From Tritonibacter mobilis (GTDB taxonomy: Bacteria > Pseudomonadota > Alphaproteobacteria > Rhodobacterales > Rhodobacteraceae): a DNA stretch of 64,000 nucleotides. Positions 18,373 through 30,540 of the stretch are shown here, piece by piece (position 1 is the first letter of the stretch; the number at the start of each line of letters is the position of its first letter). The stretch is from assembly GCF_001681715.1 (NCBI RefSeq), contig NZ_LNWY01000001.1, positions 186,001 to 250,000 of the forward strand, read 5' to 3'. The position numbers and the translations under genes were made by a program. The notes beneath the pieces are model-generated. The model did not search any database. It was not told the origin of the DNA and was given only the letters and a program-made list of their open reading frames with translations.

Positions 18373-18544
18373 CTCTGGTCTCTCCGGGTTCATAAATTCC
18401 AAAATAGGTTCGTGTTTTGGTATTTCGTTGCTCATGCAATGGCAAGTCTTATTTGCAGTTGCAGCATTTTAGCGATGCCGCATCTGCATAGTCTTTCTGC
18501 GCGATCCGCGCCATCTCGGGCGTATTTTGTCATCAAGTGGGAGA

Positions 18545-18576
18545 TTCTTCGATAAATACACCAAATGATCGAAGAA
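18545..18576. promoter_or_regulatory. 9-bp inverted repeat in the mcl1/dgcN divergent region
   Basis: TTCTTCGAT (18545-18553) and ATCGAAGAA (18568-18576) are perfect inverted repeats with a 14-base AT-rich spacer, about 100 bases before dgcN. Suits a dimeric regulator of the D-amino-acid operon or an mRNA leader hairpin. The rest of the 308-base gap (18373-18680) shows no gene. Confidence 0.45.
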
Positions 18577-18680
18577 ATCCCCTCGAAGATCCGCTGCATC
18601 GGCGAATTAGACAGGAAGTTGCAGCGCGATTGCCGCAAGCTACCTTGAACTCTGACGAATTCCAAAAAAGGACGCTGGAT

Positions 18681-19682
18681 ATGATCGAGACCCCTTATCT
18701 CCTGTTCCTCGGCGATGCGCCCGACATGCTGGCCGCCAAGGTTGCCATTGGCATCCGCGACTGGCGCCCTGACCATGCGGTGGGCCAGATCAGCCTGCCC
18801 GGCTGCGGTGCAAACCTCGGCCTCACCGAGATGACCCTGGCAGAGGCCAAAGCCGCTGGTGCCAAAACGCTGGTGATCGGTGTCGCCAACCGCGGCGGCA
18901 AAATCAGTCAGGAATGGAAAAAAGTGCTGGTGCAGGCGCTGGAAGAGGGCTTTGACCTTGCCTCCGGGCTGCACAACCTTCTGCGCGACGAGCCGGATCT
19001 GGCCGCCGTTGCCGAAGCGACGGGGCGCAAGTTGCATGACGTGCGGGTGCCGTCGGTGCAGTATCCGATTGCCGATGGTGTGAAGCGTCGCGGTAAGCGC
19101 TGCCTTGCGGTGGGCACCGATTGTTCGGTGGGCAAAATGTACACCGCACTGGCGATGGACGCCGAGATGCAGGCGCGCGGTATGAAATCGACCTTCCGCG
19201 CGACGGGTCAGACCGGCATCCTGATCACCGGTGACGGTGTGCCGCTGGATGCGGTGATCGCCGATTTTATGGCGGGCTCCATCGAGTATCTGACCCCCGA
19301 CAATGATGACGATCACTGGGATCTCATTGAGGGTCAGGGCTCGCTGTTCCACGTGTCTTATTCCGGTGTGACCATGGCACTGGTGCATGGCGGCCAGCCG
19401 GATGCGCTGATCCTGTGTCACGAGCCGACCCGCACCCATATGCGCGGTCTACCCGATTATGATGTGCCCTCGCTGGAGGAGCTGCGTGATGTGGCCCTGC
19501 CGCTGGCGCAACGGGCCAATAAGGACTGCAAGATCGTCGGGATTTCCGTCAACACCCAGCATTTGGGTGAGGAGGAAGCCGTGGCGTACCTGAAAGAAGT
19601 TGAGGGCCGCATGGGCCTGCCTGCGGTGGATCCCTATCGCCACGGCGCCGGTCGTCTGGTGGACGCGCTGGCTGCGGTCTGA
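18681..19682 (+). CDS. dgcN: D-glutamate N-acetyltransferase DgcN (DUF1611 family)
   Basis: 333 residues from the ATG at 18681, preceded by AAGGAC; the frame opens earlier without similarity. A small N-terminal domain (GDAPDMLAAKVAIGIRDW) is followed by a P-loop-like GTDCSVGK at residues 145-152 and RATGQTGILITGDGVPLDAV, the hallmark of the DUF1611 family. DgcN acetylates D-Glu; the adjacent DgcA then racemises N-acetyl-D-Glu to N-acetyl-L-Glu. The pairing with dgcA and a D-amino-acid transaminase makes the assignment strong. Confidence 0.9.
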   Translation: MIETPYLLFLGDAPDMLAAKVAIGIRDWRPDHAVGQISLPGCGANLGLTEMTLAEAKAAGAKTLVIGVANRGGKISQEWKKVLVQALEEGFDLASGLHNLLRDEPDLAAVAEATGRKLHDVRVPSVQYPIADGVKRRGKRCLAVGTDCSVGKMYTALAMDAEMQARGMKSTFRATGQTGILITGDGVPLDAVIADFMAGSIEYLTPDNDDDHWDLIEGQGSLFHVSYSGVTMALVHGGQPDALILCHEPTRTHMRGLPDYDVPSLEELRDVALPLAQRANKDCKIVGISVNTQHLGEEEAVAYLKEVEGRMGLPAVDPYRHGAGRLVDALAAV

Positions 19683-19721
19683 TTGAACATCTTTGCCGGG
19701 GGCGTCTGTGGATCGCGCAGG

Positions 19722-19759
19722 AGCCTCCGGCGGGGATATTTTTAAGAAGATGAAGAAGG
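19722..19759 (+). repeat. Intergenic GGGATATTTTT...AGAAGATGAAG element, copy B
   Basis: Between dgcN and dgcA. It shares CTCCGG, GGATATTTT and AGAAGA with copy A at 17364-17390, in the same order. It breaks up an otherwise tight operon. Confidence 0.4.
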
Positions 19760-19787
19760 GGTGGCGGCGCTGCCCGAAGGGAGAGCC

Positions 19788-20753
19788 ATGAAAATCACTG
19801 TCACCCCCGATGTGTTCAAACTGGCGCAGGTTTTTACCATCTCGCGCGGATCGCGCACCGAGGCCAAGGTGCTGACGGTTCGGGTCGAAGATGACGATCA
19901 TGTGGGCTGGGGCGAATGTGTGCCCTATGCGCGCTATGATGAGACGCTGGAGTCGGTCACGGCTCAGGTCGAAGCGCTGCCTGACGTGTTTACACGGGCG
20001 GAATTGCAGAGGCTGCTGCCTGCTGGGGCCGCGCGCAATGCGGTGGATTGTGCCCTGTGGGATCTGGAGGCCAAAAAGGCCGGCAAGCCGGTCTGGGAAT
20101 TGGCTGGGCTGGAGGCGCCGGGGCCGGAGATCACCGCCTATACGCTGTCGCTGGCCTCTCCCGAAGAGATGCAGAAACAGGCCGCAGAGAATGCCCATCG
20201 TCCGCTATTGAAGATCAAGCTCGGCACGCCCGAGGATATGCCCCGTCTTGAGGCGGTGCGCGCGGGCGCGCCCGAGGCCCGGATCATCATTGACGCCAAT
20301 GAGGGCTGGTCGGCCGAGGTTTACGCCGAACTTGCACCGCATCTGCTGCGCCTTGGGGTGGAACTGGTGGAGCAACCCCTGCCCGCCGGTGAAGATGAGG
20401 CGCTGATCGGGATGGAACGTCCGGTGCCGGTCTGCGCCGATGAGAGCGCGCATGACTGCGCCAGCCTGCCGAAACTCAAGGGCAAATATGATGTTGTGAA
20501 CATCAAACTGGACAAGACCGGCGGTCTGACGGAAGCCTTGAAACTGCGCGATGCGGCGCTGGCTGAGGGCTATCAGGTGATGGTCGGCTGCATGGTGGGA
20601 TCGTCGCTGGCGATGGCGCCCGCGACACTGGTGGCACAGGGTGCGTTGGTGACGGATCTTGACGGGCCGCTGCTTCTGGCCGAAGACCGTCCCGAACCGC
20701 TGACTTTTGACGCCGAGGGGGTGCATCCCCCGCGGCCTGCGCTCTGGGGCTAA
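19788..20753 (+). CDS. dgcA: N-acetyl-D-glutamate racemase DgcA (enolase superfamily)
   Basis: 321 residues from the ATG at 19788, preceded by AAGGGAGAG. The muconate-lactonizing-like fold shows the N-terminal capping domain, LLKIKLG near residue 145 (catalytic Lys of the KxK type, here K-I-K), IIDANEGWS and VEQPLP (metal ligands Asp and Glu), CADESAHD (third ligand) and VNIKLDKTGGL (second catalytic Lys). This is the dipeptide-epimerase-like subgroup to which DgcA belongs. It interconverts N-acetyl-D-Glu and N-acetyl-L-Glu. It lies 10 bases before the transaminase gene. Confidence 0.9.
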   Translation: MKITVTPDVFKLAQVFTISRGSRTEAKVLTVRVEDDDHVGWGECVPYARYDETLESVTAQVEALPDVFTRAELQRLLPAGAARNAVDCALWDLEAKKAGKPVWELAGLEAPGPEITAYTLSLASPEEMQKQAAENAHRPLLKIKLGTPEDMPRLEAVRAGAPEARIIIDANEGWSAEVYAELAPHLLRLGVELVEQPLPAGEDEALIGMERPVPVCADESAHDCASLPKLKGKYDVVNIKLDKTGGLTEALKLRDAALAEGYQVMVGCMVGSSLAMAPATLVAQGALVTDLDGPLLLAEDRPEPLTFDAEGVHPPRPALWG

Positions 20754-20763
20754 GGAGACGACC

Positions 20764-21624
20764 ATGACCCGTACCGTATATGTAAACGGCGACTACCTGC
20801 CGGAAACCGAGGCCAAGGTCTCTATCTTTGATCGCGGCTTTCTGATGGCGGATGCGGTCTATGAGGTGACTTCTGTGCTGGGCGGCAAGCTCATCGATTT
20901 TGAGGGCCACGCGGTGCGCCTGAAGCGATCGCTGGATGAGCTCGATATGGCCGAGCCCTGCACCAAGGACGAGCTCTTGGAGATCCACCGCAAGCTGGTG
21001 GAGCTGAATGACATCGACGAGGGGCTGGTCTATTTGCAGGTCACGCGCGGCTCGGACGGCGACCGGGATTTTGTGTTCCCATCGGAGGATACCAAGCCGA
21101 CCATCGTGTTGTTTACGCAGAACAAACCGGGCCTTGCGGACAGTGCTGCGGCCAAGGTGGGGGCCAAGATCATTTCGATCGAGGACATCCGCTGGGGCCG
21201 TCGCGACATCAAGACCGTGCAGCTGTTGTACCCCTCCATGGGCAAGATGATGGCGAAGAAAGCCGGTGCCGATGACGCTTGGATGATCGAGGATGGCCAC
21301 GTGACCGAGGGCACCTCCAACAACGCCTATTTCGTCAAGGATGGCGTGATCGTCACCCGCCCGCTGTCCAATGACATCCTGCACGGGATCACCCGCAAGG
21401 CAGTGCTGCGCATGGCCGAAGAGGCGCAGCTGAAGGTCGAAGAGCGCCTCTTTACCATCGACGAGGCAAAAGCGGCGGATGAGGCGTTTACCACCTCCGC
21501 CTCGGCTTTTGTGATGCCGGTTGTGGAGATCGACGGCGTGGCCCTGGGCGACGGCACACCCGGTCCGATCGCCAAGCGTCTGCGCGAGATCTACCTTGAG
21601 GAAAGCATCAAGGCGGCTGTGTAA
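20764..21624 (+). CDS. dat: D-amino-acid transaminase (class IV, PLP)
   Basis: 286 residues from the ATG at 20764, 10 bases after dgcA. The fold-type IV pattern is clear: FDRGFLMADAVYEV, FEGHAVRLKRSL, VTRGSDGDRDF, the PLP Lys at residue 150 in RRDIKTVQLL, then EGTSNNAYFV and LHGITRKAVL. It transfers the amino group of D-amino acids to 2-oxoglutarate, producing D-Glu for DgcN and DgcA. Branched-chain aminotransferases are related, but the context favours D-amino acids. A strong terminator follows. Confidence 0.88.
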   Translation: MTRTVYVNGDYLPETEAKVSIFDRGFLMADAVYEVTSVLGGKLIDFEGHAVRLKRSLDELDMAEPCTKDELLEIHRKLVELNDIDEGLVYLQVTRGSDGDRDFVFPSEDTKPTIVLFTQNKPGLADSAAAKVGAKIISIEDIRWGRRDIKTVQLLYPSMGKMMAKKAGADDAWMIEDGHVTEGTSNNAYFVKDGVIVTRPLSNDILHGITRKAVLRMAEEAQLKVEERLFTIDEAKAADEAFTTSASAFVMPVVEIDGVALGDGTPGPIAKRLREIYLEESIKAAV

Positions 21625-24189: not shown

Positions 24190-25623
24190 CTAGCCCGCCC
24201 CGCCCGGCTGCACCTGACACAGCGGGTTGATCACCGGGCTGAGGCCGGAGCCAAAGACGCTGTCCTCGCCCACCTCCCCCAGATCGGTGGCCTTCGCCTT
24301 GAGCCGCGCGGCAATCTCGGGCGGGGTCATCTCGGGCGCGTCCCGGCGCAAGAGCGCTGCCGCCGCGCTCACAAAGGGCACCGCAAAAGAGGTTCCGGTC
24401 TTCCACTTCGCGCCGCGCACCGAGGCCGCCGTCCAGACCGCAACGCCGGGTGCCGCGAGGTCGATGTGCGGTCCCTGCACGGCGCGTCTGTAGACATTGC
24501 GGTCCCGGTCCACCGCCGTCACCGCGATCACCTCCGGGATGGCAGAAGGGTACAGGGGATCAGACTGCGGACCGGCGTTGCCAGCGGCGGCGACCACCAC
24601 CAGATTGCGGCTGTCGATCAAGTCGCCCAGCAATGCCGCAAGTGCGGCGTTGGGTGGTCCGGCAAGGCTCAGGTTCATCACATCGATGTCTTCCTGCGCA
24701 ATGCGGTCGATGGCATCCATCAAAGAGAACACATCGGCGCGCTCATCACCGCCCGCACGGTGAAACGGGTCAATCGCCACCACTTCCGCCTGCGGCAGCA
24801 GGCCGGGCGAGCGGGTGCCGGGGTTGCCCACCAAAAGCGCCGCCACCGCAGTGCCATGAAGCGCGCGTGAGGCCGTGTCCCCCAAAGGTTTGAAATCGAG
24901 CACCCGAAGGGCGGCCCCCTCAAAGGTCTCGTGATCGGGGTTGAGGCCGGTATCCACCAGCCCGATGCGCACGCCTTCACCACAGGACATGGCGCGCGCA
25001 TCCGGAATAGGCCAGCCGAAGGAGGCACGGATCGGACATTCCAAGCCGTTGCAATCCGGATCAAATCCCTGCTCGCTGCGGTAATAGTGGTTAAGGTCTG
25101 CGCCCGCAGCGCTGGGGCGCGCGCGCACCAGATCCCGCGCCGCGTTGAGCGAGGTCGCCTCTGGAATGCGCAGCCGATGCGCGGTGGTCTGAAGCGTGTT
25201 GAGCGTGCGCGTCTCGATCAGCGCAAAGCCCTGCGCCTCTAGTGCGGCAAGATCCTCTCCCGCGAGCGACAGCACGACGATTTCATCCGGCACCGCAACC
25301 GGGGGTGGCGGGGCTGCGCGACGGCGAGGGGCGGCTGCCTCGCGCCGTGGGAACAGACGGCGCAGAAAGCCTCCGCCCTGCTCGCCCGTGCGGGGCCGCG
25401 CATCACGTTCGCTGCGCCGGGGGCTGTCACGATCATCATCGTCATCATCATCGCCGTCGTCGTCCCCATCATCACCACCGTCGTCACCCCCGTCATCTCC
25501 GCCGTCATCCCCGCCATCATCATCGTCCGCGCGTGCAATGCCGACCTCAGGATCGAAAAGCGGCACCAGTGCCGGGCCGACCAATATCAAAGCTGCAAAT
25601 ATCAAAATCCAAATATGACGCAT
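24190..25623 (-). CDS. Secreted subtilisin-like (S8) serine peptidase with Asp-rich segment
   Basis: 477 residues from the ATG at 25623. A signal peptide or membrane anchor covers residues 1-32. A segment made almost only of Asp and Gly follows (33-66), then an Arg/Pro-rich linker and a probable propeptide-like region. The catalytic domain has Asp224 (VDTG), His256 (LHGTAV), the oxyanion Asn349 (AAAGN) and Ser412 (GTSFA). The Asp run may bind Ca2+. It is divergent from an ECF sigma gene whose product, with its anti-sigma factor, may control it (inference). Confidence 0.9.
   Translation of the reverse strand: MRHIWILIFAALILVGPALVPLFDPEVGIARADDDDGGDDGGDDGGDDGGDDGDDDGDDDDDDDRDSPRRSERDARPRTGEQGGGFLRRLFPRREAAAPRRRAAPPPPVAVPDEIVVLSLAGEDLAALEAQGFALIETRTLNTLQTTAHRLRIPEATSLNAARDLVRARPSAAGADLNHYYRSEQGFDPDCNGLECPIRASFGWPIPDARAMSCGEGVRIGLVDTGLNPDHETFEGAALRVLDFKPLGDTASRALHGTAVAALLVGNPGTRSPGLLPQAEVVAIDPFHRAGGDERADVFSLMDAIDRIAQEDIDVMNLSLAGPPNAALAALLGDLIDSRNLVVVAAAGNAGPQSDPLYPSAIPEVIAVTAVDRDRNVYRRAVQGPHIDLAAPGVAVWTAASVRGAKWKTGTSFAVPFVSAAAALLRRDAPEMTPPEIAARLKAKATDLGEVGEDSVFGSGLSPVINPLCQVQPGGAG
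25426..25527 (-). repeat. Low-complexity GAC/GAT-GGC repeat encoding a poly-Asp/Gly run
   Basis: 34 codons almost all Asp or Gly, built from imperfect 12-base units coding Asp-Asp-Gly-Gly. Such runs change length by slippage, so the segment may vary among strains. Confidence 0.7.
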
Positions 25624-26220
25624 CCTGATTTGTCCTTTCTTGCCGACGCTCTGAATACGCATGGCGACCACAGTTATTCCGTGTCATATAAGAAGAAATT
25701 TTCCGCAAGCCCAGCAGAGCCCCCGTTGTCCGAACCCGAATTTGAGTCCGCACTGATCGCGCTTTTGCCAAATCTCTACCGTTTTGCATTGCGCCTGTCG
25801 CGCAAGGGCGATCTGGCCGAGGATCTGGTGCAGATCGCAGTGGAGCGGGCACTTGCGACGCGCGAAACCTATGATCCGACCCTGCGGTTGGAGCCGTGGC
25901 TGATCCGTATCCTGCGCAATGCATGGATCGACATGACACGCCGCAGCAAAACCCGCGGGGTGGAGCTGGATGTCTACGACACCCCCGATGCCGCCGTGGT
26001 GGATGGCGCGCGCGTGACCGAACAGGCCTTGATGCTGGATGCCACCGAACGGGCCATGGCCACATTGCCGGAGGATCAGCGCGAAATCCTGCTGCTGGTC
26101 TGCTATCAGGAACTCTCATACGCCGAGACCGCCGAGATCCTCGATATCCCCAAAGGCACCGTCATGAGCCGCCTGTCCCGCGCCCGCAAAGCGCTTTCGG
26201 AAAAACTGGGAATAAACTGA
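25615..26220 (+). CDS. ECF-type RNA polymerase sigma factor
   Basis: Up to 201 residues from the ATG at 25615, but this start overlaps the divergent subtilase start and has no ribosome site. GTG 25681 or TTG 25726 fits the family better, since region 2 (ALIALLPNLYRFALRLSRKG) begins soon after. Region 2 contains DLVQIAVERAL and WLIRILRNAWIDMTRR; region 4 has LPEDQREILLLVCYQELSYA and IPKGTVMSRLSRARKAL. It directs polymerase to a small regulon. The anti-sigma gene follows after 38 bases in the same direction. Confidence 0.88.
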   Translation: MTHPDLSFLADALNTHGDHSYSVSYKKKFSASPAEPPLSEPEFESALIALLPNLYRFALRLSRKGDLAEDLVQIAVERALATRETYDPTLRLEPWLIRILRNAWIDMTRRSKTRGVELDVYDTPDAAVVDGARVTEQALMLDATERAMATLPEDQREILLLVCYQELSYAETAEILDIPKGTVMSRLSRARKALSEKLGIN

Positions 26221-26258: not shown

Positions 26259-27011
26259 ATGAATCAGGACCACATCCCAGACGAGGTATTGATGGCATAT
26301 GCCGATGGCGAACTGCCCGCTGACGAGGCGGCAGCGCTTGAGGCACGGTTGTCTGAGGATGCAGATCTGGCGGCGCGCGTGCAGGTGTTTTCTGCCAGTG
26401 CCGCCGCCCTGCAGGGCCTGAAACACGCAGACACGTCAGCAGCCATGCCCGCCGGGCTCGAACAGGCGCTGCGGGCGCGTGTCAGCTCTGCTGCGGCGGA
26501 TGCGCCTGCGATGGTTGCGGCGGATCCAGTGCCTGCGGGCAATGTGGTGGCCTTTCCTCAGCGGCGCGTGCCGCTCTGGACCGGGGCGCTGGCAGCAACT
26601 GTTGCGTTGGCCGTCGGCCTTGGCGCGGGGTTGTTGGCGGGCAAGGGCACAGGCCCCAGTGGCAGCGTGGACCCGGTCTTTGCCGCACTCGACAGCCTGC
26701 CCTCGGGCGAGGTGACAACGCTTGCGGATGGCACAGAGCTGCGCATGGTGGCGAGCTTCAACAGCTCTGACGGGGCGCTGTGTCGCGAATATGAACAAAT
26801 CGGCCAGAATGCGACGGGTCAGCTGACGGTCGCCTGTCGCGATCAAGGCGCATGGGTGCCGCAGCTGGTGGTGGCGCTTGGTGGGGCCGAGGGCTACGCG
26901 CCTGCCTCTGCACCAGAGCTGCTGGACCTTTATTACATGCAGTCAGAGGCGGGGTCGGTCCTGTCCCCTGAAGAAGAGCGTGCAGCCCTTGCGGCGCTGA
27001 CGCGCAACTAA
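26259..27011 (+). CDS. Membrane-bound anti-sigma factor
   Basis: 250 residues. An N-terminal anti-sigma domain (DEVLMAYADGELPADEAAALEARL, as in ChrR/FecR-like regulators but without the Zn-binding His/Cys set) is followed by an Ala-rich linker, one membrane segment near residues 106-128, and a periplasmic domain with two Cys (LCREYEQ and VACRDQG), which may form a disulfide. AGGAGAACG precedes the ATG. It should hold the upstream sigma factor until an envelope signal arrives; the divergent subtilase could be target or signal protease (inference). Confidence 0.83.
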   Translation: MNQDHIPDEVLMAYADGELPADEAAALEARLSEDADLAARVQVFSASAAALQGLKHADTSAAMPAGLEQALRARVSSAAADAPAMVAADPVPAGNVVAFPQRRVPLWTGALAATVALAVGLGAGLLAGKGTGPSGSVDPVFAALDSLPSGEVTTLADGTELRMVASFNSSDGALCREYEQIGQNATGQLTVACRDQGAWVPQLVVALGGAEGYAPASAPELLDLYYMQSEAGSVLSPEEERAALAALTRN

Positions 27012-27020
27012 GGCAGGGGA

Positions 27021-28604
27021 TTACCCCCCTGCCCTCACTTCACTCATATCGTTGGTTTTGCGCTCAAACGGCAGAGCTGTGGCAGAGATCACGGTGGCCT
27101 CACGCTTTTGCACATACCGCATGAGGCGCGCGCGGGTCTGATCGTCCAGCATACGCACCTCTGGCCCGATCAGCAGCAGGCCCGGTTTGCGCAGCCTGAC
27201 CCGCGCCCATGAGATCAGCACCCGTTCGCTCAATGACAGCATACGTCCGCCCTCGCTGATGCGCCCATCCAGACCGCCCAGACGATCCAGCAACGGGCTG
27301 AGGTGACAGCGTTCGACCAGCCGCAGCAGGCGTGCATCGCTGGGGCGTTCTTCCAGCCCCAATGTCAGCACCCGGCGCAGAGAGCCTTGCAAGATCACAG
27401 CAGCCCCGTCGATACGCCCAATGCGGCGGCGCAGGCTCCCGGCGGAGAGGTCTTGCAAGGGGCGCTCCCCCAGCATCACCTCGCCAGAAGGCGCCTCGTC
27501 CAGCCGTTGGATCACATCGCAAAGTGACGCAAAATCAATCGGTTCTAGGTCCAGCACCCGCCGCGTCGCTGCCTCCAGCCTGCAGGTGATCTGCTGCCCG
27601 CTGGGCAGGGCTACCTGATGAAGCGCGACCGTGAGCGCGCCTTTGGGAAGGGCGCGGCGGGCGGCGGGCGTGGGGCGTTGCGCGCGGCTGAGCGCGGCGC
27701 TGAGTTTTTGTTGCGCAGCGCGGTGGGCGGCGCGCAGGTTCCACAGGCTGCCAAGGTCGCGCATCGGCTGCAACAAAAGGCCCAGCGCGGCCAGCGCCCC
27801 CGCGATGGTGCCGGGGCTGATGCCGCTGCGAAAGCCTGCAACGATCACCACCGCGGCCGCAGCACCTGCCATCAGATCAGGCACGGCCTTCAGCGCTTCG
27901 GCCCATGTGATGCGGCGCAGGGCGACCTCGATCATCGCCGAGAGCTGCCGGTTCATTTGCCGTGCCTCGCGCCGTCGTCGCCCCAACATATCGAGATGCG
28001 GGGCCAGTGGCATTCGTTCGGCCATATCGGCGGCGATGCTGGCGCGGCGCTGGCGCAGGTCCTGATGCAGCGGCAGGAGTTTCCAGCCCGCCAGCAGGAT
28101 CACCGCGATCCCAAAACTCAGGATCGGCAGCACCACCAGCGCCAGCAGCGGGGCCATCAGCGCCAGCGCAATCAGGGCACAGGGCACCATCACAAGGGCT
28201 GCGATCAGGCGCGGCAGGCCCAGCGCCAGCCAATTGCGAAAGGCGGTCATATCCCCCACAAAGCGCAGCGACATATAGCCGGTGCGCCGGGTGGCCACCG
28301 CGCGGGCTGGCATGCGGGCGGCGTGGTCAAACAAGGCCCGGCGCAGGCTGCGGGCATAGTCCTGACCGAGCCGCTCGCCCGCGCGCCGCGCCAGCACCCG
28401 CACAGTCGCGGTGGCCACACCAGAGAGCACCAGCGCCGCAAGCATCAGCGCAGGCAGCGCCGTTTCCTGATGCATCGCGTCAAACAATGCGCGGGTGGCA
28501 AAAGCAGCCAGCCCCATGGCCCCGCCTTGCAACAGCACCAGAAAGCTGACCAGCGCCAGCCCGCGTTTGCGGGCCGGGGTCAGGAGGGGCGGCACCGGGG
28601 TCAT
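27021..28604 (-). CDS. ABC exporter-like protein with degenerate nucleotide-binding domain
   Basis: 527 residues. Residues 1-300 look like a normal type-I ABC exporter membrane domain, with six hydrophobic segments. The C-terminal 200 residues keep the fold pattern, but every catalytic motif is gone: the Walker A position (about 351-360) reads LDLEPIDFAS, the signature is LSLSE (456-460), and Walker B reads LLLIGPE with Asp and Glu lost. It therefore should not hydrolyse ATP itself. The ATG overlaps the stop of the upstream P-loop gene by four bases. Without frameshifts, it is not a simple pseudogene. Confidence 0.8.
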   Translation of the reverse strand: MTPVPPLLTPARKRGLALVSFLVLLQGGAMGLAAFATRALFDAMHQETALPALMLAALVLSGVATATVRVLARRAGERLGQDYARSLRRALFDHAARMPARAVATRRTGYMSLRFVGDMTAFRNWLALGLPRLIAALVMVPCALIALALMAPLLALVVLPILSFGIAVILLAGWKLLPLHQDLRQRRASIAADMAERMPLAPHLDMLGRRRREARQMNRQLSAMIEVALRRITWAEALKAVPDLMAGAAAAVVIVAGFRSGISPGTIAGALAALGLLLQPMRDLGSLWNLRAAHRAAQQKLSAALSRAQRPTPAARRALPKGALTVALHQVALPSGQQITCRLEAATRRVLDLEPIDFASLCDVIQRLDEAPSGEVMLGERPLQDLSAGSLRRRIGRIDGAAVILQGSLRRVLTLGLEERPSDARLLRLVERCHLSPLLDRLGGLDGRISEGGRMLSLSERVLISWARVRLRKPGLLLIGPEVRMLDDQTRARLMRYVQKREATVISATALPFERKTNDMSEVRAGG

Positions 28605-29653
28605 GCGCTGTGGCGCAGATCGGGCAAGGCGCGCAGGGCAAAGGTGTTGGCCTCTGCGGGATCGGCCAGATCCTCTTTGCGCAGGACGGTGACACCGGTT
28701 GCGGCCTCAGCCTCGGCCACCGCCATGGGCGAGCAGCTGACAATCCCGGTGAGCGCATCGGGGCGCAGCCCGTGACGTGCAAGCTCTGCCACGCCACCCG
28801 CAGCCGCCACCGCATCGCCGCAAGCAAAAAGCAGCCCGGAGATACGCGCCTGAAACGCCGGGTCCGCGATGATCTGTGCGGTCTCGCGCTGGAAAAGCCC
28901 GTCCGCGATCTCCATCACCGCGATGTCGCAGCGGTTTTCGGCGGCATGGTGCAACAGGCGATCCATCCCCTGTTTCACACGGGCAAGCGGTTCGTGAAAG
29001 GTGGTGACCATACCCGCATCGGTGAAATCGGCCACCAGATGCGCGCCGGTATCGGCATATTCATTATAGTCGCCAAAAGCACCGGTGCCGGTCCCTTTGA
29101 GCGCCGCGACACGGTAGCCCGCCCGCCGCAGACCCAGCGCCAATTGCGCGGTGGCCAGTGTTTTGCCGGAGTTCATGGCGGTGCCAAGGACGGCGATCAC
29201 CGGGATGTCCTGCGCGCGCGTGGTGTTTTGCAGGGCGAACCGCTCAAGGTTCACGGGTTGGCCAGCGTCATCCAGCAGCCGCGCCGCCGGGATCAGCCGT
29301 GTTGCGGCCCGCACCCGGCTGTTGCGCGCCACCATACGCCCGATACAGCCGCCACCGGCAAGCAGATCCGCGCCGTTGGCGTCGATCTCGGCGATGCCTT
29401 CGAACTGATCGGGCGCGTAGCGCGCGCCACAGGCCAGCACCACCGCATCCCCGGGATAGATGAACGAGGGCCGCCCGGAGGTCAGTTGCACGCGCTTGTG
29501 TTGGCCAAGCTCCGCCACATGGGCGAGGATCAGATCGCCGGGGCGAGCCTGATCAAAGGCGGTATCGCCAGCGGCCACCACCGCGCGGTCGACGCGGCGG
29601 GTCGAAAAGGTCCATTTGGCATCGGTCAGTTGCGAAAGGTCAAAACGGGTCAT
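28601..29653 (-). CDS. DgcN/DUF1611-like P-loop NTPase
   Basis: 350 residues. An N-terminal domain of about 140 residues has no match I recognise. A clear P-loop, GTAMNSGKT (157-165), is followed by ALKGTGTGAFGD, TGAHLVADFTDAGM and VMEIADGLFQRET. The order P-loop, TGxTG-like loop and Asp-rich strand is like DgcN at 18.7 kb and the BioD/MobB class. It is coupled to the degenerate ABC gene (4-base overlap) and lies 35 bases after the alpha/beta hydrolase. Reaction unknown; acyl transfer or ligation to a carboxylate or amine would fit the fold (inference). Confidence 0.7.
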   Translation of the reverse strand: MTRFDLSQLTDAKWTFSTRRVDRAVVAAGDTAFDQARPGDLILAHVAELGQHKRVQLTSGRPSFIYPGDAVVLACGARYAPDQFEGIAEIDANGADLLAGGGCIGRMVARNSRVRAATRLIPAARLLDDAGQPVNLERFALQNTTRAQDIPVIAVLGTAMNSGKTLATAQLALGLRRAGYRVAALKGTGTGAFGDYNEYADTGAHLVADFTDAGMVTTFHEPLARVKQGMDRLLHHAAENRCDIAVMEIADGLFQRETAQIIADPAFQARISGLLFACGDAVAAAGGVAELARHGLRPDALTGIVSCSPMAVAEAEAATGVTVLRKEDLADPAEANTFALRALPDLRHSA

Positions 29654-29688: not shown

Positions 29689-30540
29689 TCAGACGGCTTG
29701 GGAAAAGGGGAACAGATCCGGCCCCGCCACATGCCGGGCAAGCCCTGCGACGCGGATCGCCTGCGCCACATCATGCTGCACGCCGGGAAGCGCTGTCAGG
29801 GTGACATCGGCGCTGACGCCAGCTTGGGATGCAGCGGTGCGCAGTGCCTCGGCATAGGTGGCGGCGCGGGCCACACGGGTTGTGCCCTGCACCACATCAA
29901 GGTCGGAGGTCTGGCGCAGGCTTTCATCGCGGTCGGTGTCACTGTCGCCGACGAGGATCTCGGTCGGGATCGACAGGAACCGCGCAAGCCCCGCCCGGTG
30001 ACGGCGCACCCAGAGCGCCAGTTGGCGATCATTTTTATCATCCAGACCATAGGGATAGGCCATGCGGTCATCGGGCAGACAGTACCACCCCGCCGCAACA
30101 AGGCTGAGCCGCGCGACGCGGTTGGGGTAGAGCATGGCAAAACGATGCGCGAGTTGAGCACCGCCGGAGTGGCCAAAGATCTGTGCCGGACGCGCAAAGG
30201 CTGCATCCTGAGTGGCGAGGAAGTCCATCAGCCCCGCCAAGGCCACATCCGGGCGGGCGGCGCGGCAGGGGCGCTGGAAATGCGGCCAGCGGTTTGGCGT
30301 GAAATGCGGCACCACAATCCTGCGGCCTGTACGCGCGGCCTCGGGGGCAAAGAGCCGGGCCAGTTCCTTGGCGTTGCGGGAAATACCATGCAGCACCACC
30401 AGCGGCGCGCGGCCCGCATCATGGGTGGGGTGCAGCACAAAGGCGCGCAGACGTCCGGCTGGTGTGGGCGCGACCACCCGGTCGATGGAGGCGCTGATGC
30501 GGGTGCAATCCTTTAGTACGGTCGTGGAGAGATGTTTCAT
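29689..30540 (-). CDS. Alpha/beta hydrolase
   Basis: 283 residues. The oxyanion segment VVLHGISRN near residue 50 and nucleophile elbow GHSGG (Ser125) are clear; Asp of GDSDTD near 205 and His of LPGVQHDV near 255 complete the likely triad. No signal peptide is evident, so it acts in the cytoplasm. It is the first gene of a three-gene set with the P-loop protein and the degenerate ABC protein. The substrate is unknown; esters or lactones are typical. Confidence 0.82.
   Translation of the reverse strand: MKHLSTTVLKDCTRISASIDRVVAPTPAGRLRAFVLHPTHDAGRAPLVVLHGISRNAKELARLFAPEAARTGRRIVVPHFTPNRWPHFQRPCRAARPDVALAGLMDFLATQDAAFARPAQIFGHSGGAQLAHRFAMLYPNRVARLSLVAAGWYCLPDDRMAYPYGLDDKNDRQLALWVRRHRAGLARFLSIPTEILVGDSDTDRDESLRQTSDLDVVQGTTRVARAATYAEALRTAASQAGVSADVTLTALPGVQHDVAQAIRVAGLARHVAGPDLFPFSQAV

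What the first reader, a model, noticed from the sequence alone, without database searches (positions are those of the whole stretch)
27021..28604. ABC exporter that has lost every ATPase motif but kept its frame
The membrane half looks normal. In the C-terminal half the Walker A position reads LDLEPIDFAS, the signature reads LSLSE, and Walker B lost both Asp and Glu (LLLIGPE). Yet the whole domain still lines up with a nucleotide-binding domain over 200 residues with no stop or frameshift. A pseudo-ATPase fixed in a tight operon suggests a new role, such as a scaffold, sensor or passive channel, or a partner of the P-loop protein coupled to it.
Basis: partly seen in the sequence, partly recalled or inferred. 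Interest (0 to 1): 0.75.

Follow-up and report, generated by a model that had tools for sequence, protein, structure and literature searches.

The report
ABC transporter with dead ATPase domain
A bacterial membrane protein built like an ATP-driven transporter has lost the parts that bind and burn ATP, yet selection keeps the gene and its altered motor domain in many marine bacteria next to one particular enzyme gene, so it probably works without ATP of its own.

Summary
The 527-aa ORF at 27021-28604(-) has a type IV ABC-exporter fold but no Walker A, Walker B Asp/Glu or H-loop His, a signature reduced to LSLSE, and a shortened C-terminus. It does not look like a decaying gene. Of 49 aligned homologues, 31 lack Walker A, 7 keep it but lack the Walker B Glu, and 11 keep Walker A plus Asp-Glu. 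All 26 homologues at 45% identity or more lack Walker A. The 11 ATPase-like versions lie further out and are not fully canonical: none has the Q-loop Gln. A single loss is rejected on the membrane-domain tree. dN/dS of the dead domain is 0.10-0.30 in 14 pairs. Constraint has moved from the nucleotide site to segments expected to face the membrane domain. In 49 of 49 rows the gene follows a SIMIBI-type P-loop gene, overlapping it by 1 or 4 bases in 42; that partner keeps its own P-loop in 60 of 60 rows. Best reading: an ATP-independent carrier or membrane dock for that enzyme; substrate and mechanism are unknown. New variant of a known kind.

The parts
27021..28604 (-). Pseudo-ATPase type IV ABC half-exporter, 527 aa (P0001)
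   Evidence: Open frame; ABC_membrane 58 bits, ABC_tran 13.2 bits below cut-off; AF2 model and Foldseek
27690..28604 (-). Transmembrane domain, residues 1-305, six long helices
   Evidence: Model secondary structure; dN/dS 0.07-0.21 in 14 pairs
27525..27560 (-). Former Walker A loop, residues 349-360; residue 355 is Asp/Glu in 18 of 23 and residue 357 Asp in 18 of 23 dead-domain rows (window: P355, D357)
   Evidence: Alignment
27426..27446 (-). Family segment S-R-G-S-L-R-R, residues 387-393 (window SAGSLRR), conserved in the dead-domain rows only
27372..27386 (-). Family segment GSLRR, residues 407-411
27222..27278 (-). X-loop and reduced signature, residues 443-461 (E451, G453, L456 kept; signature LSLSE)
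27159..27185 (-). Former Walker B, residues 474-482 (LLLIGPE), no Asp, no Glu at the catalytic position
28601..29653 (-). Translationally coupled SIMIBI-type P-loop protein, 350 aa, distantly DUF1611-like; overlaps the ABC gene by 4 bases
   Evidence: Walker A form GxxxxxGK[ST] in 60 of 60 rows; DUF1611_C 19.5 bits, below cut-off 25; AF2 pLDDT 90; Foldseek SRP GTPase, dethiobiotin synthetase, CTP synthase
29689..30540 (-). Alpha/beta hydrolase, first gene of the set
   Evidence: Abhydrolase_1 30.4 bits, cut-off 25.8; found in 41 of 49 rows; Ser, Asp and His columns kept in the 41 rows read by eye
25615..26220 (+). ECF sigma factor, associated module
   Evidence: Sigma70_r4_2 70.4 bits; ECF found in 17 of 49 loci, many of which are short
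26259..27011 (+). Anti-sigma factor, converging on the ABC gene
   Evidence: NF052375 48.6 bits, below cut-off 100; found in 14 of 49 loci
24190..25671 (-). S8 serine peptidase with an Asp/Gly-rich stretch, associated module
   Evidence: Relatives annotated as S8 family serine peptidase; found in 14 of 49 loci

Best explanation
The gene makes an ABC-exporter-fold membrane protein (most likely a homodimer) that can no longer bind or split ATP in the canonical way. Shown: fold, motif loss, loss shared and recurrent in a family, purifying selection, obligate gene pairing with a P-loop enzyme. Inferred: ancestral forms exported the product of the pathway with their own ATPase; the ATPase became dispensable and was lost step by step (Walker B Glu, then Walker A, then the C-terminus). 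The membrane domain still works as an ATP-independent carrier or gate, and the dead domain is kept because its membrane-facing side (family segments SRGSLRR and GSLRR, X-loop) still holds the coupling helices and probably docks the SIMIBI P-loop enzyme.
For: 31 of 49 rows lack Walker A, 7 keep it without the Walker B Glu, 11 keep both: a graded series within one gene order. One loss rejected: p-AU 1e-8, and 2e-98 with five long-branch rows left out. dN/dS of the dead domain 0.10-0.30 (14 pairs), like the 0.20-0.27 of three pairs that keep Walker A and Asp-Glu; 0.09-0.17 in three Tritonibacter pairs. Constraint swap inside the domain: membrane-facing segments 0.70 against nucleotide-site segments 0.35 mean pairwise identity in 23 dead rows; 0.41 against 0.57 in 11 ATPase-like rows; 1 of 200 circular shifts reaches the difference. 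P-loop gene directly upstream in 49 of 49 rows, overlap 1 or 4 bases in 42; its P-loop kept in 60 of 60; in dead rows it is the most conserved of the three compared parts (mean identity 0.74, TMD 0.64, dead domain 0.46). No second ABC half-transporter beside it as a rule: other ABC ORFs lie in 5 of 49 loci, none adjacent.
Against: No physical contact between the two proteins was tested. The ATPase-like relatives also pair with the P-loop gene, so the pairing is older than the loss and does not show that the partner compensates for it. The dead domain evolves about twice as fast as the membrane domain in most pairs, so part of it is only weakly constrained. Against the four nearest ATPase-like rows the constraint swap is weaker: 7 of 200 shifts reach it, and their membrane-facing segments are as conserved (0.71) as in dead rows. 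9 of 31 P-loop loci have no family ABC beside them. One homologous locus (L045, Paracoccus beibuensis) carries broken ABC and P-loop frames.
Confidence: 0.5

Rival explanations
1. It is a proton- or gradient-driven secondary carrier, like SbmA/BacA (SLiPT), and the dead domain is only a structural remnant with no partner.
For: SLiPTs are thought to descend from full ABC transporters that lost the ATPase domain (passages of PMC13316013). E236, near the cytoplasmic end of helix 210-259, is invariant in 23 of 23 dead rows and Ala/Gly/Thr in 11 of 11 ATPase-like rows.
Against: The coupling-helix regions are among the most conserved parts (identity 0.81 and 0.76), whereas SLiPTs lost them. E236 does not track the loss strictly: Glu in two rows with Walker A (L032, L098), absent from three of four other loss rows.
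Confidence: 0.2
2. It is the degenerate half of a heterodimeric ABC exporter whose working half is encoded elsewhere in the genome.
For: Heterodimers with one degenerate site are common (recalled; abstract of PMC7544095 in the listing). The own genome has six other matches to the protein.
Against: Known degenerate halves usually keep Walker A (recalled). No partner half lies beside it: 5 of 49 loci have another ABC ORF at all, and no third ABC gene recurs in the neighbourhoods. Co-occurrence of a distant partner gene was not tested.
Confidence: 0.13
3. The SIMIBI P-loop protein has taken over as the energy source, making a hybrid pump in the style of ArsA-ArsB.
For: Partner is SIMIBI by fold, keeps its P-loop in 60 of 60 rows, is translationally coupled, and ArsA homologues are proposed to energise several unrelated carriers (abstract of PMC2963123).
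Against: Its nearest known relatives by fold search and annotation include biosynthetic enzymes (dethiobiotin synthetase, CTP synthase). It is present with ATPase-like ABCs too.
Confidence: 0.1
4. A decaying pseudogene that happens to be open.
For: Loss of motifs, shortened C-terminus, and faster change in the dead domain than in the membrane domain; broken frames in L045.
Against: dN/dS 0.10-0.30 in 14 pairs across several genera; open frame in 31 of 31 Walker A-less rows used (rows were picked as long ORFs, fragments L017, L045, L047 set aside); new conserved positions.
Confidence: 0.04
5. The domain still binds a nucleotide by an unusual route.
For: The fold is kept and the reduced signature region still has constraint (identity 0.55).
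Against: The former phosphate loop is acidic in most dead rows (Asp/Glu at 355 in 18 of 23, Asp at 357 in 18 of 23), and the Walker A Lys is absent from 31 of 49 rows.
Confidence: 0.03

Closest known systems
Type IV ABC exporters (MsbA, BmrA, Sav1866, TmrAB, CydDC)
   Same: Six-helix membrane domain plus NBD fold over the full length; best NCBIfam match CydD, 99 bits
   Different: No Walker A, Walker B acids, Q-loop Gln or H-loop; CydD cut-off is 435 bits, so not CydD; operon partner is a P-loop enzyme, not a second half
SbmA/BacA (SLiPT) peptide transporters
   Same: ABC-exporter-type membrane domain that no longer runs on its own ATPase
   Different: SLiPTs have no NBD and no coupling helices; here both are kept, the NBD as a dead domain
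Heterodimeric ABC exporters with a degenerate site (TAP, TM287/288, BmrCD)
   Same: Catalytically impaired NBD in an exporter
   Different: Those keep one working site and a partner half; here all site elements of this protein are lost and no partner half is adjacent
CesCD of the cereulide locus (ABC transporter that tethers a synthetase)
   Same: Precedent for an ABC transporter acting as membrane dock for an enzyme (abstract and passages of PMC7527721)
   Different: CesC needs its Walker A for that role; TMD and NBD are separate genes
DUF1611 / DgcN (for the partner)
   Same: Same P-loop spacing GxxxxxGK; DUF1611_C 19.5 bits
   Different: Below the Pfam cut-off of 25; partner ends in GKT, the window's DgcN-like protein in GKM

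Membership tests
Type IV ABC exporter (fold) | Six-helix membrane domain with coupling helices | tested here: met
   Pfam ABC_membrane 58 bits; helices in the model; Foldseek
Type IV ABC exporter (fold) | C-terminal NBD fold | tested here: met
   Full-length Foldseek alignments; ABC_tran itself below cut-off, 13.2 of 25
ABC ATPase (function) | Walker A GxxxxGK[ST] | tested here: not met
   Absent in all three frames of the coding strand and in 31 of 49 rows
ABC ATPase (function) | Walker B Asp and catalytic Glu | tested here: not met
   Gly480 and Pro481 in the window protein
ABC ATPase (function) | Signature LSGGQ and H-loop His | tested here: not met
   LSLSE; Ala at the H-loop column
CydD/CydC | NCBIfam equivalog cut-off | tested here: not met
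   99.2 of 435 and 63.3 of 329 bits
SLiPT (SbmA/BacA) | No NBD and no coupling helices | tested here: not met
   NBD fold present and coupling regions conserved
SLiPT (SbmA/BacA) | Glutamate ladder and proton coupling | not tested
   Only a lone clade-specific Glu (E236) was noted
Heterodimeric exporter with degenerate site | Partner half with a working NBD | tested here: inconclusive
   None adjacent; a distant partner not searched for
DUF1611 (partner protein) | Pfam PF07755 cut-off | tested here: not met
   19.5 of 25 bits; relatives are annotated DUF1611 or dethiobiotin synthase
SIMIBI P-loop class (partner protein) | SIMIBI fold | tested here: met
   Foldseek best rows SRP54/FtsY, CTP synthase, dethiobiotin synthetase; TM-scores 0.34-0.42 by query length because the N-terminal beta domain is not matched

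The most novel reading that the evidence does not exclude
A carrier with the ABC-exporter fold whose own ATPase has died and which is now driven or gated by a SIMIBI-class P-loop protein docked on its dead NBD: an ArsA-ArsB-like hybrid pump evolved from an ABC transporter, reached in parallel in at least two lineages.
Probability: 0.1. Interest if true: 0.9.

Novelty: new variant of a known kind. Interest (0 to 1): 0.6.

Why it matters
SbmA-type carriers are thought to have come from ABC transporters that lost the ATPase domain, but the way there is not seen. This family shows a graded series within one gene order: ATPase-like, Walker A without catalytic Glu, dead domain with shortened end. 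It lets one ask directly what an NBD is still for once it cannot use ATP, and whether the coupled P-loop enzyme docks on or drives the carrier. It also warns that annotation as 'ABC transporter ATP-binding protein' can be wrong about the ATP.

Tried and rejected
Frameshift or misread ORF: rejected. Lone decaying copy: rejected by homologues and dN/dS. CydDC subunit: below cut-offs. Defence system: no PADLOC match for the three genes at E<=0.1. Adjacent heterodimer partner: none as a rule. E236 as a proton site tied to the loss: does not track it strictly. My first idea that the Q-loop Gln was lost together with the rest was wrong: the 11 ATPase-like rows lack it too. A first recount of the partner's P-loop used too short a spacing and gave 10 of 60; with the spacing GxxxxxGK[ST], the one seen in the alignment, it is 60 of 60. 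Literature: searches gave no paper, 34 gave one unrelated paper (listing only), 53 and 76 gave papers on other ABC transporters; none of the listings described such a family, but the library holds open-licence papers only and searches are by words.

Rows dropped before counts: L008 and L009 (same contigs as L025 and L038), L048 and L049 (other ABC proteins), L017, L045 and L047 (fragments), L082 and L102 (near-copy and fragment); L010-L016 were replaced by the longer loci L095-L101. L019, L026, L040, L044 were left out of the 23-row conservation sets as near-copies. L106-L110 (plasmids) are in no tree. Only the 28 homologues from the search for related loci, not the ATPase-like ones, went into the structure alignments (29 rows for the ABC protein, 26 rows for the partner).

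Full report
What is there. The ORF at 27021-28604(-) is a single open frame of 527 codons. Its N-terminal 305 residues score as ABC_membrane (58 bits, cut-off 28); the C-terminal part reaches only 13.2 bits as ABC_tran (cut-off 25). By sequence it aligns with BmrA over residues 37-496 (E 6e-19), and the AlphaFold2 model (29 sequences, pLDDT 83.1, pTM 0.69) matches full-length type IV exporters in the PDB (869 matches at E<=0.001; TM-score about 0.5-0.67 and rmsd over 11 A in the rows shown, which fits a different angle between the two domains). The nucleotide-site motifs are absent: Walker A, Walker B Asp and Glu, Q-loop Gln, H-loop His; the signature reads LSLSE. No Walker A string is hidden in another frame. 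The protein also ends early: 21 residues from residue 507 on, against 46-62 in homologues that keep Walker A and Asp-Glu.

The family. In the window's own family 11 of 198 genomes searched, the own one included, have a match at E<=1e-30. A genome-contig scan gave 32 loci, 30 of them of this family by score, including Marinobacter and a Porticoccaceae MAG. Searching with the P-loop neighbour reached further: 20 of 385 genomes of the class and 4 of 398 of the phylum (two of the 4 already in the 20). After dropping copies and fragments, 49 ABC rows remain: 31 without Walker A, 7 with Walker A but without the Walker B Glu, 11 with Walker A and Asp-Glu. All 26 homologues at 45% identity or more lack Walker A; the two at 42-43% (Porticoccaceae, Marinobacter) keep it without the Glu. 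The 11 ATPase-like rows are themselves unusual: none has the Q-loop Gln, 9 of 11 keep the H-loop His, and none has a plain LSGGQ, so the family was already altered before Walker A was lost. Nine Walker A-less rows keep the Walker B Asp, and one (L042) keeps Asp-Glu.

How often it was lost. On a tree of the membrane domain alone (51 rows with 2 outgroup ABCs), the Walker A state needs 4 changes, and starred branches force 3. Holding all Walker A-less rows together is rejected (p-AU 1e-8), also with the five longest-branch rows left out (p 2e-98; 3 changes in 46 rows). The window's main clade alone may be one loss: holding its 27 rows together is not rejected (p 0.44). So at least two independent losses are well supported (the main clade and L078/L101); L096 and L093 are probable further ones but sit on long branches.

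Selection. NG86 dN/dS of the dead domain is 0.10-0.30 in 14 pairs of dead rows, with 0.07-0.21 for the membrane domain and 0.06-0.26 for the P-loop protein; 0.30 in the separate loss pair L078/L101 (dS above 2, so rough); and 0.20-0.27 in three pairs that keep Walker A and Asp-Glu. Within Tritonibacter (window against two T. mobilis plasmids, and these against each other) the dead domain gives 0.09-0.17 and the membrane domain 0.08-0.09. The dead domain is thus under purifying selection, but weaker than the membrane domain.

Where the constraint lies. In 23 dead rows the most conserved parts are the regions of the two intracellular loops (mean pairwise identity 0.81 and 0.76), the SRGSLRR segment (0.75), GSLRR (0.72) and the X-loop (0.64); Walker A (0.29), the D-loop region (0.17) and the C-terminus (0.12) are the least. 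In the 11 ATPase-like rows Walker A (0.67), Walker B (0.72) and signature (0.64) lead. Inside the NBD this swap is 0.51 and is reached by 1 of 200 circular shifts; against only the four nearest ATPase-like rows it is 0.32 and reached by 7 of 200, and those four rows conserve the membrane-facing segments as well (0.71). So what is firm is that the membrane-facing side was kept while the nucleotide side was let go. That these segments face the membrane domain follows from known type IV exporter structures (recalled), not from a contact measured here. The former phosphate loop has become acidic in most dead rows.

The operon. In 49 of 49 rows the ABC gene follows the P-loop gene on the same strand, with an overlap of 1 base (22) or 4 bases (20) in 42; part of the rows were found through the P-loop gene, but the rows found through the ABC gene show it too. 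Of 23 loci found through the P-loop gene, 14 have the family ABC gene beside it; 9 do not, mostly the most distant ones. An alpha/beta hydrolase is found in 41 of 49 loci and ECF sigma, anti-sigma and S8 peptidase together in 13 of 49, where many loci are too short to show them. No other gene family recurs around them except these and antisense ORFs. Plasmid copies exist in Tritonibacter mobilis, Paracoccus and Sulfitobacter; the last, on a conjugative plasmid, keeps Walker A and Asp-Glu.

The partner. The P-loop protein is more conserved than the ABC protein (mean identity 0.74 in dead rows), keeps GxxxxxGK[ST] in 60 of 60 rows, and its model (pLDDT 90, pTM 0.89) matches SIMIBI proteins: SRP GTPases, dethiobiotin synthetase, CTP synthase. 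It is distantly like DUF1611. Its N-terminal beta domain is not matched in the rows seen. Its reaction is unknown.

Reading. The most economical account is that an ABC exporter working with a P-loop enzyme lost its own ATPase at least twice, in steps, while its membrane domain and the membrane-facing side of the NBD were kept. The protein then acts without its own ATP, as a carrier or gate, a membrane dock for the enzyme, or both; the last step is inference. Whether the SIMIBI partner supplies energy is open and is my boldest reading. SbmA/SLiPT is the nearest precedent for an ABC membrane domain without ATP (passages of PMC13316013), and CesCD for an ABC transporter as enzyme dock (abstract and passages of PMC7527721).

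Noticed in passing
18537-21624 (+): A DgcN-like DUF1611 protein, a dipeptide-epimerase-like gene and a D-amino-acid-aminotransferase-like gene in a row, resembling the D-glutamate (dgcN/dgcA) pathway; names recalled, dgcN passages seen in PMC12363236. A distant relative of the P-loop partner 9 kb away may be coincidence.
   Followed up: partly
24190-25671 (-): S8 peptidase with a long Asp/Gly run near its start, divergent from an ECF sigma gene; the same trio stands near the module in 13 of 49 loci.
   Followed up: partly
L045 1-2005: Paracoccus beibuensis locus: the ABC and P-loop frames appear broken; decay or an assembly fault.
   Followed up: no
   Followed up: no
28601-29653 (-): Partner protein has invariant Cys 75, 103, 278 and 307 in 26 rows; Cys 103 and 278 are absent from the 11 ATPase-like rows.
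   Followed up: partly
L080: A P-loop relative (42% identity) with sigma, anti-sigma and S8 genes but no family ABC gene found beside it.
   Followed up: no
27011-27021: Anti-sigma and ABC genes converge with 9 bases between their stop codons, so their transcripts probably run into each other.
   Followed up: no
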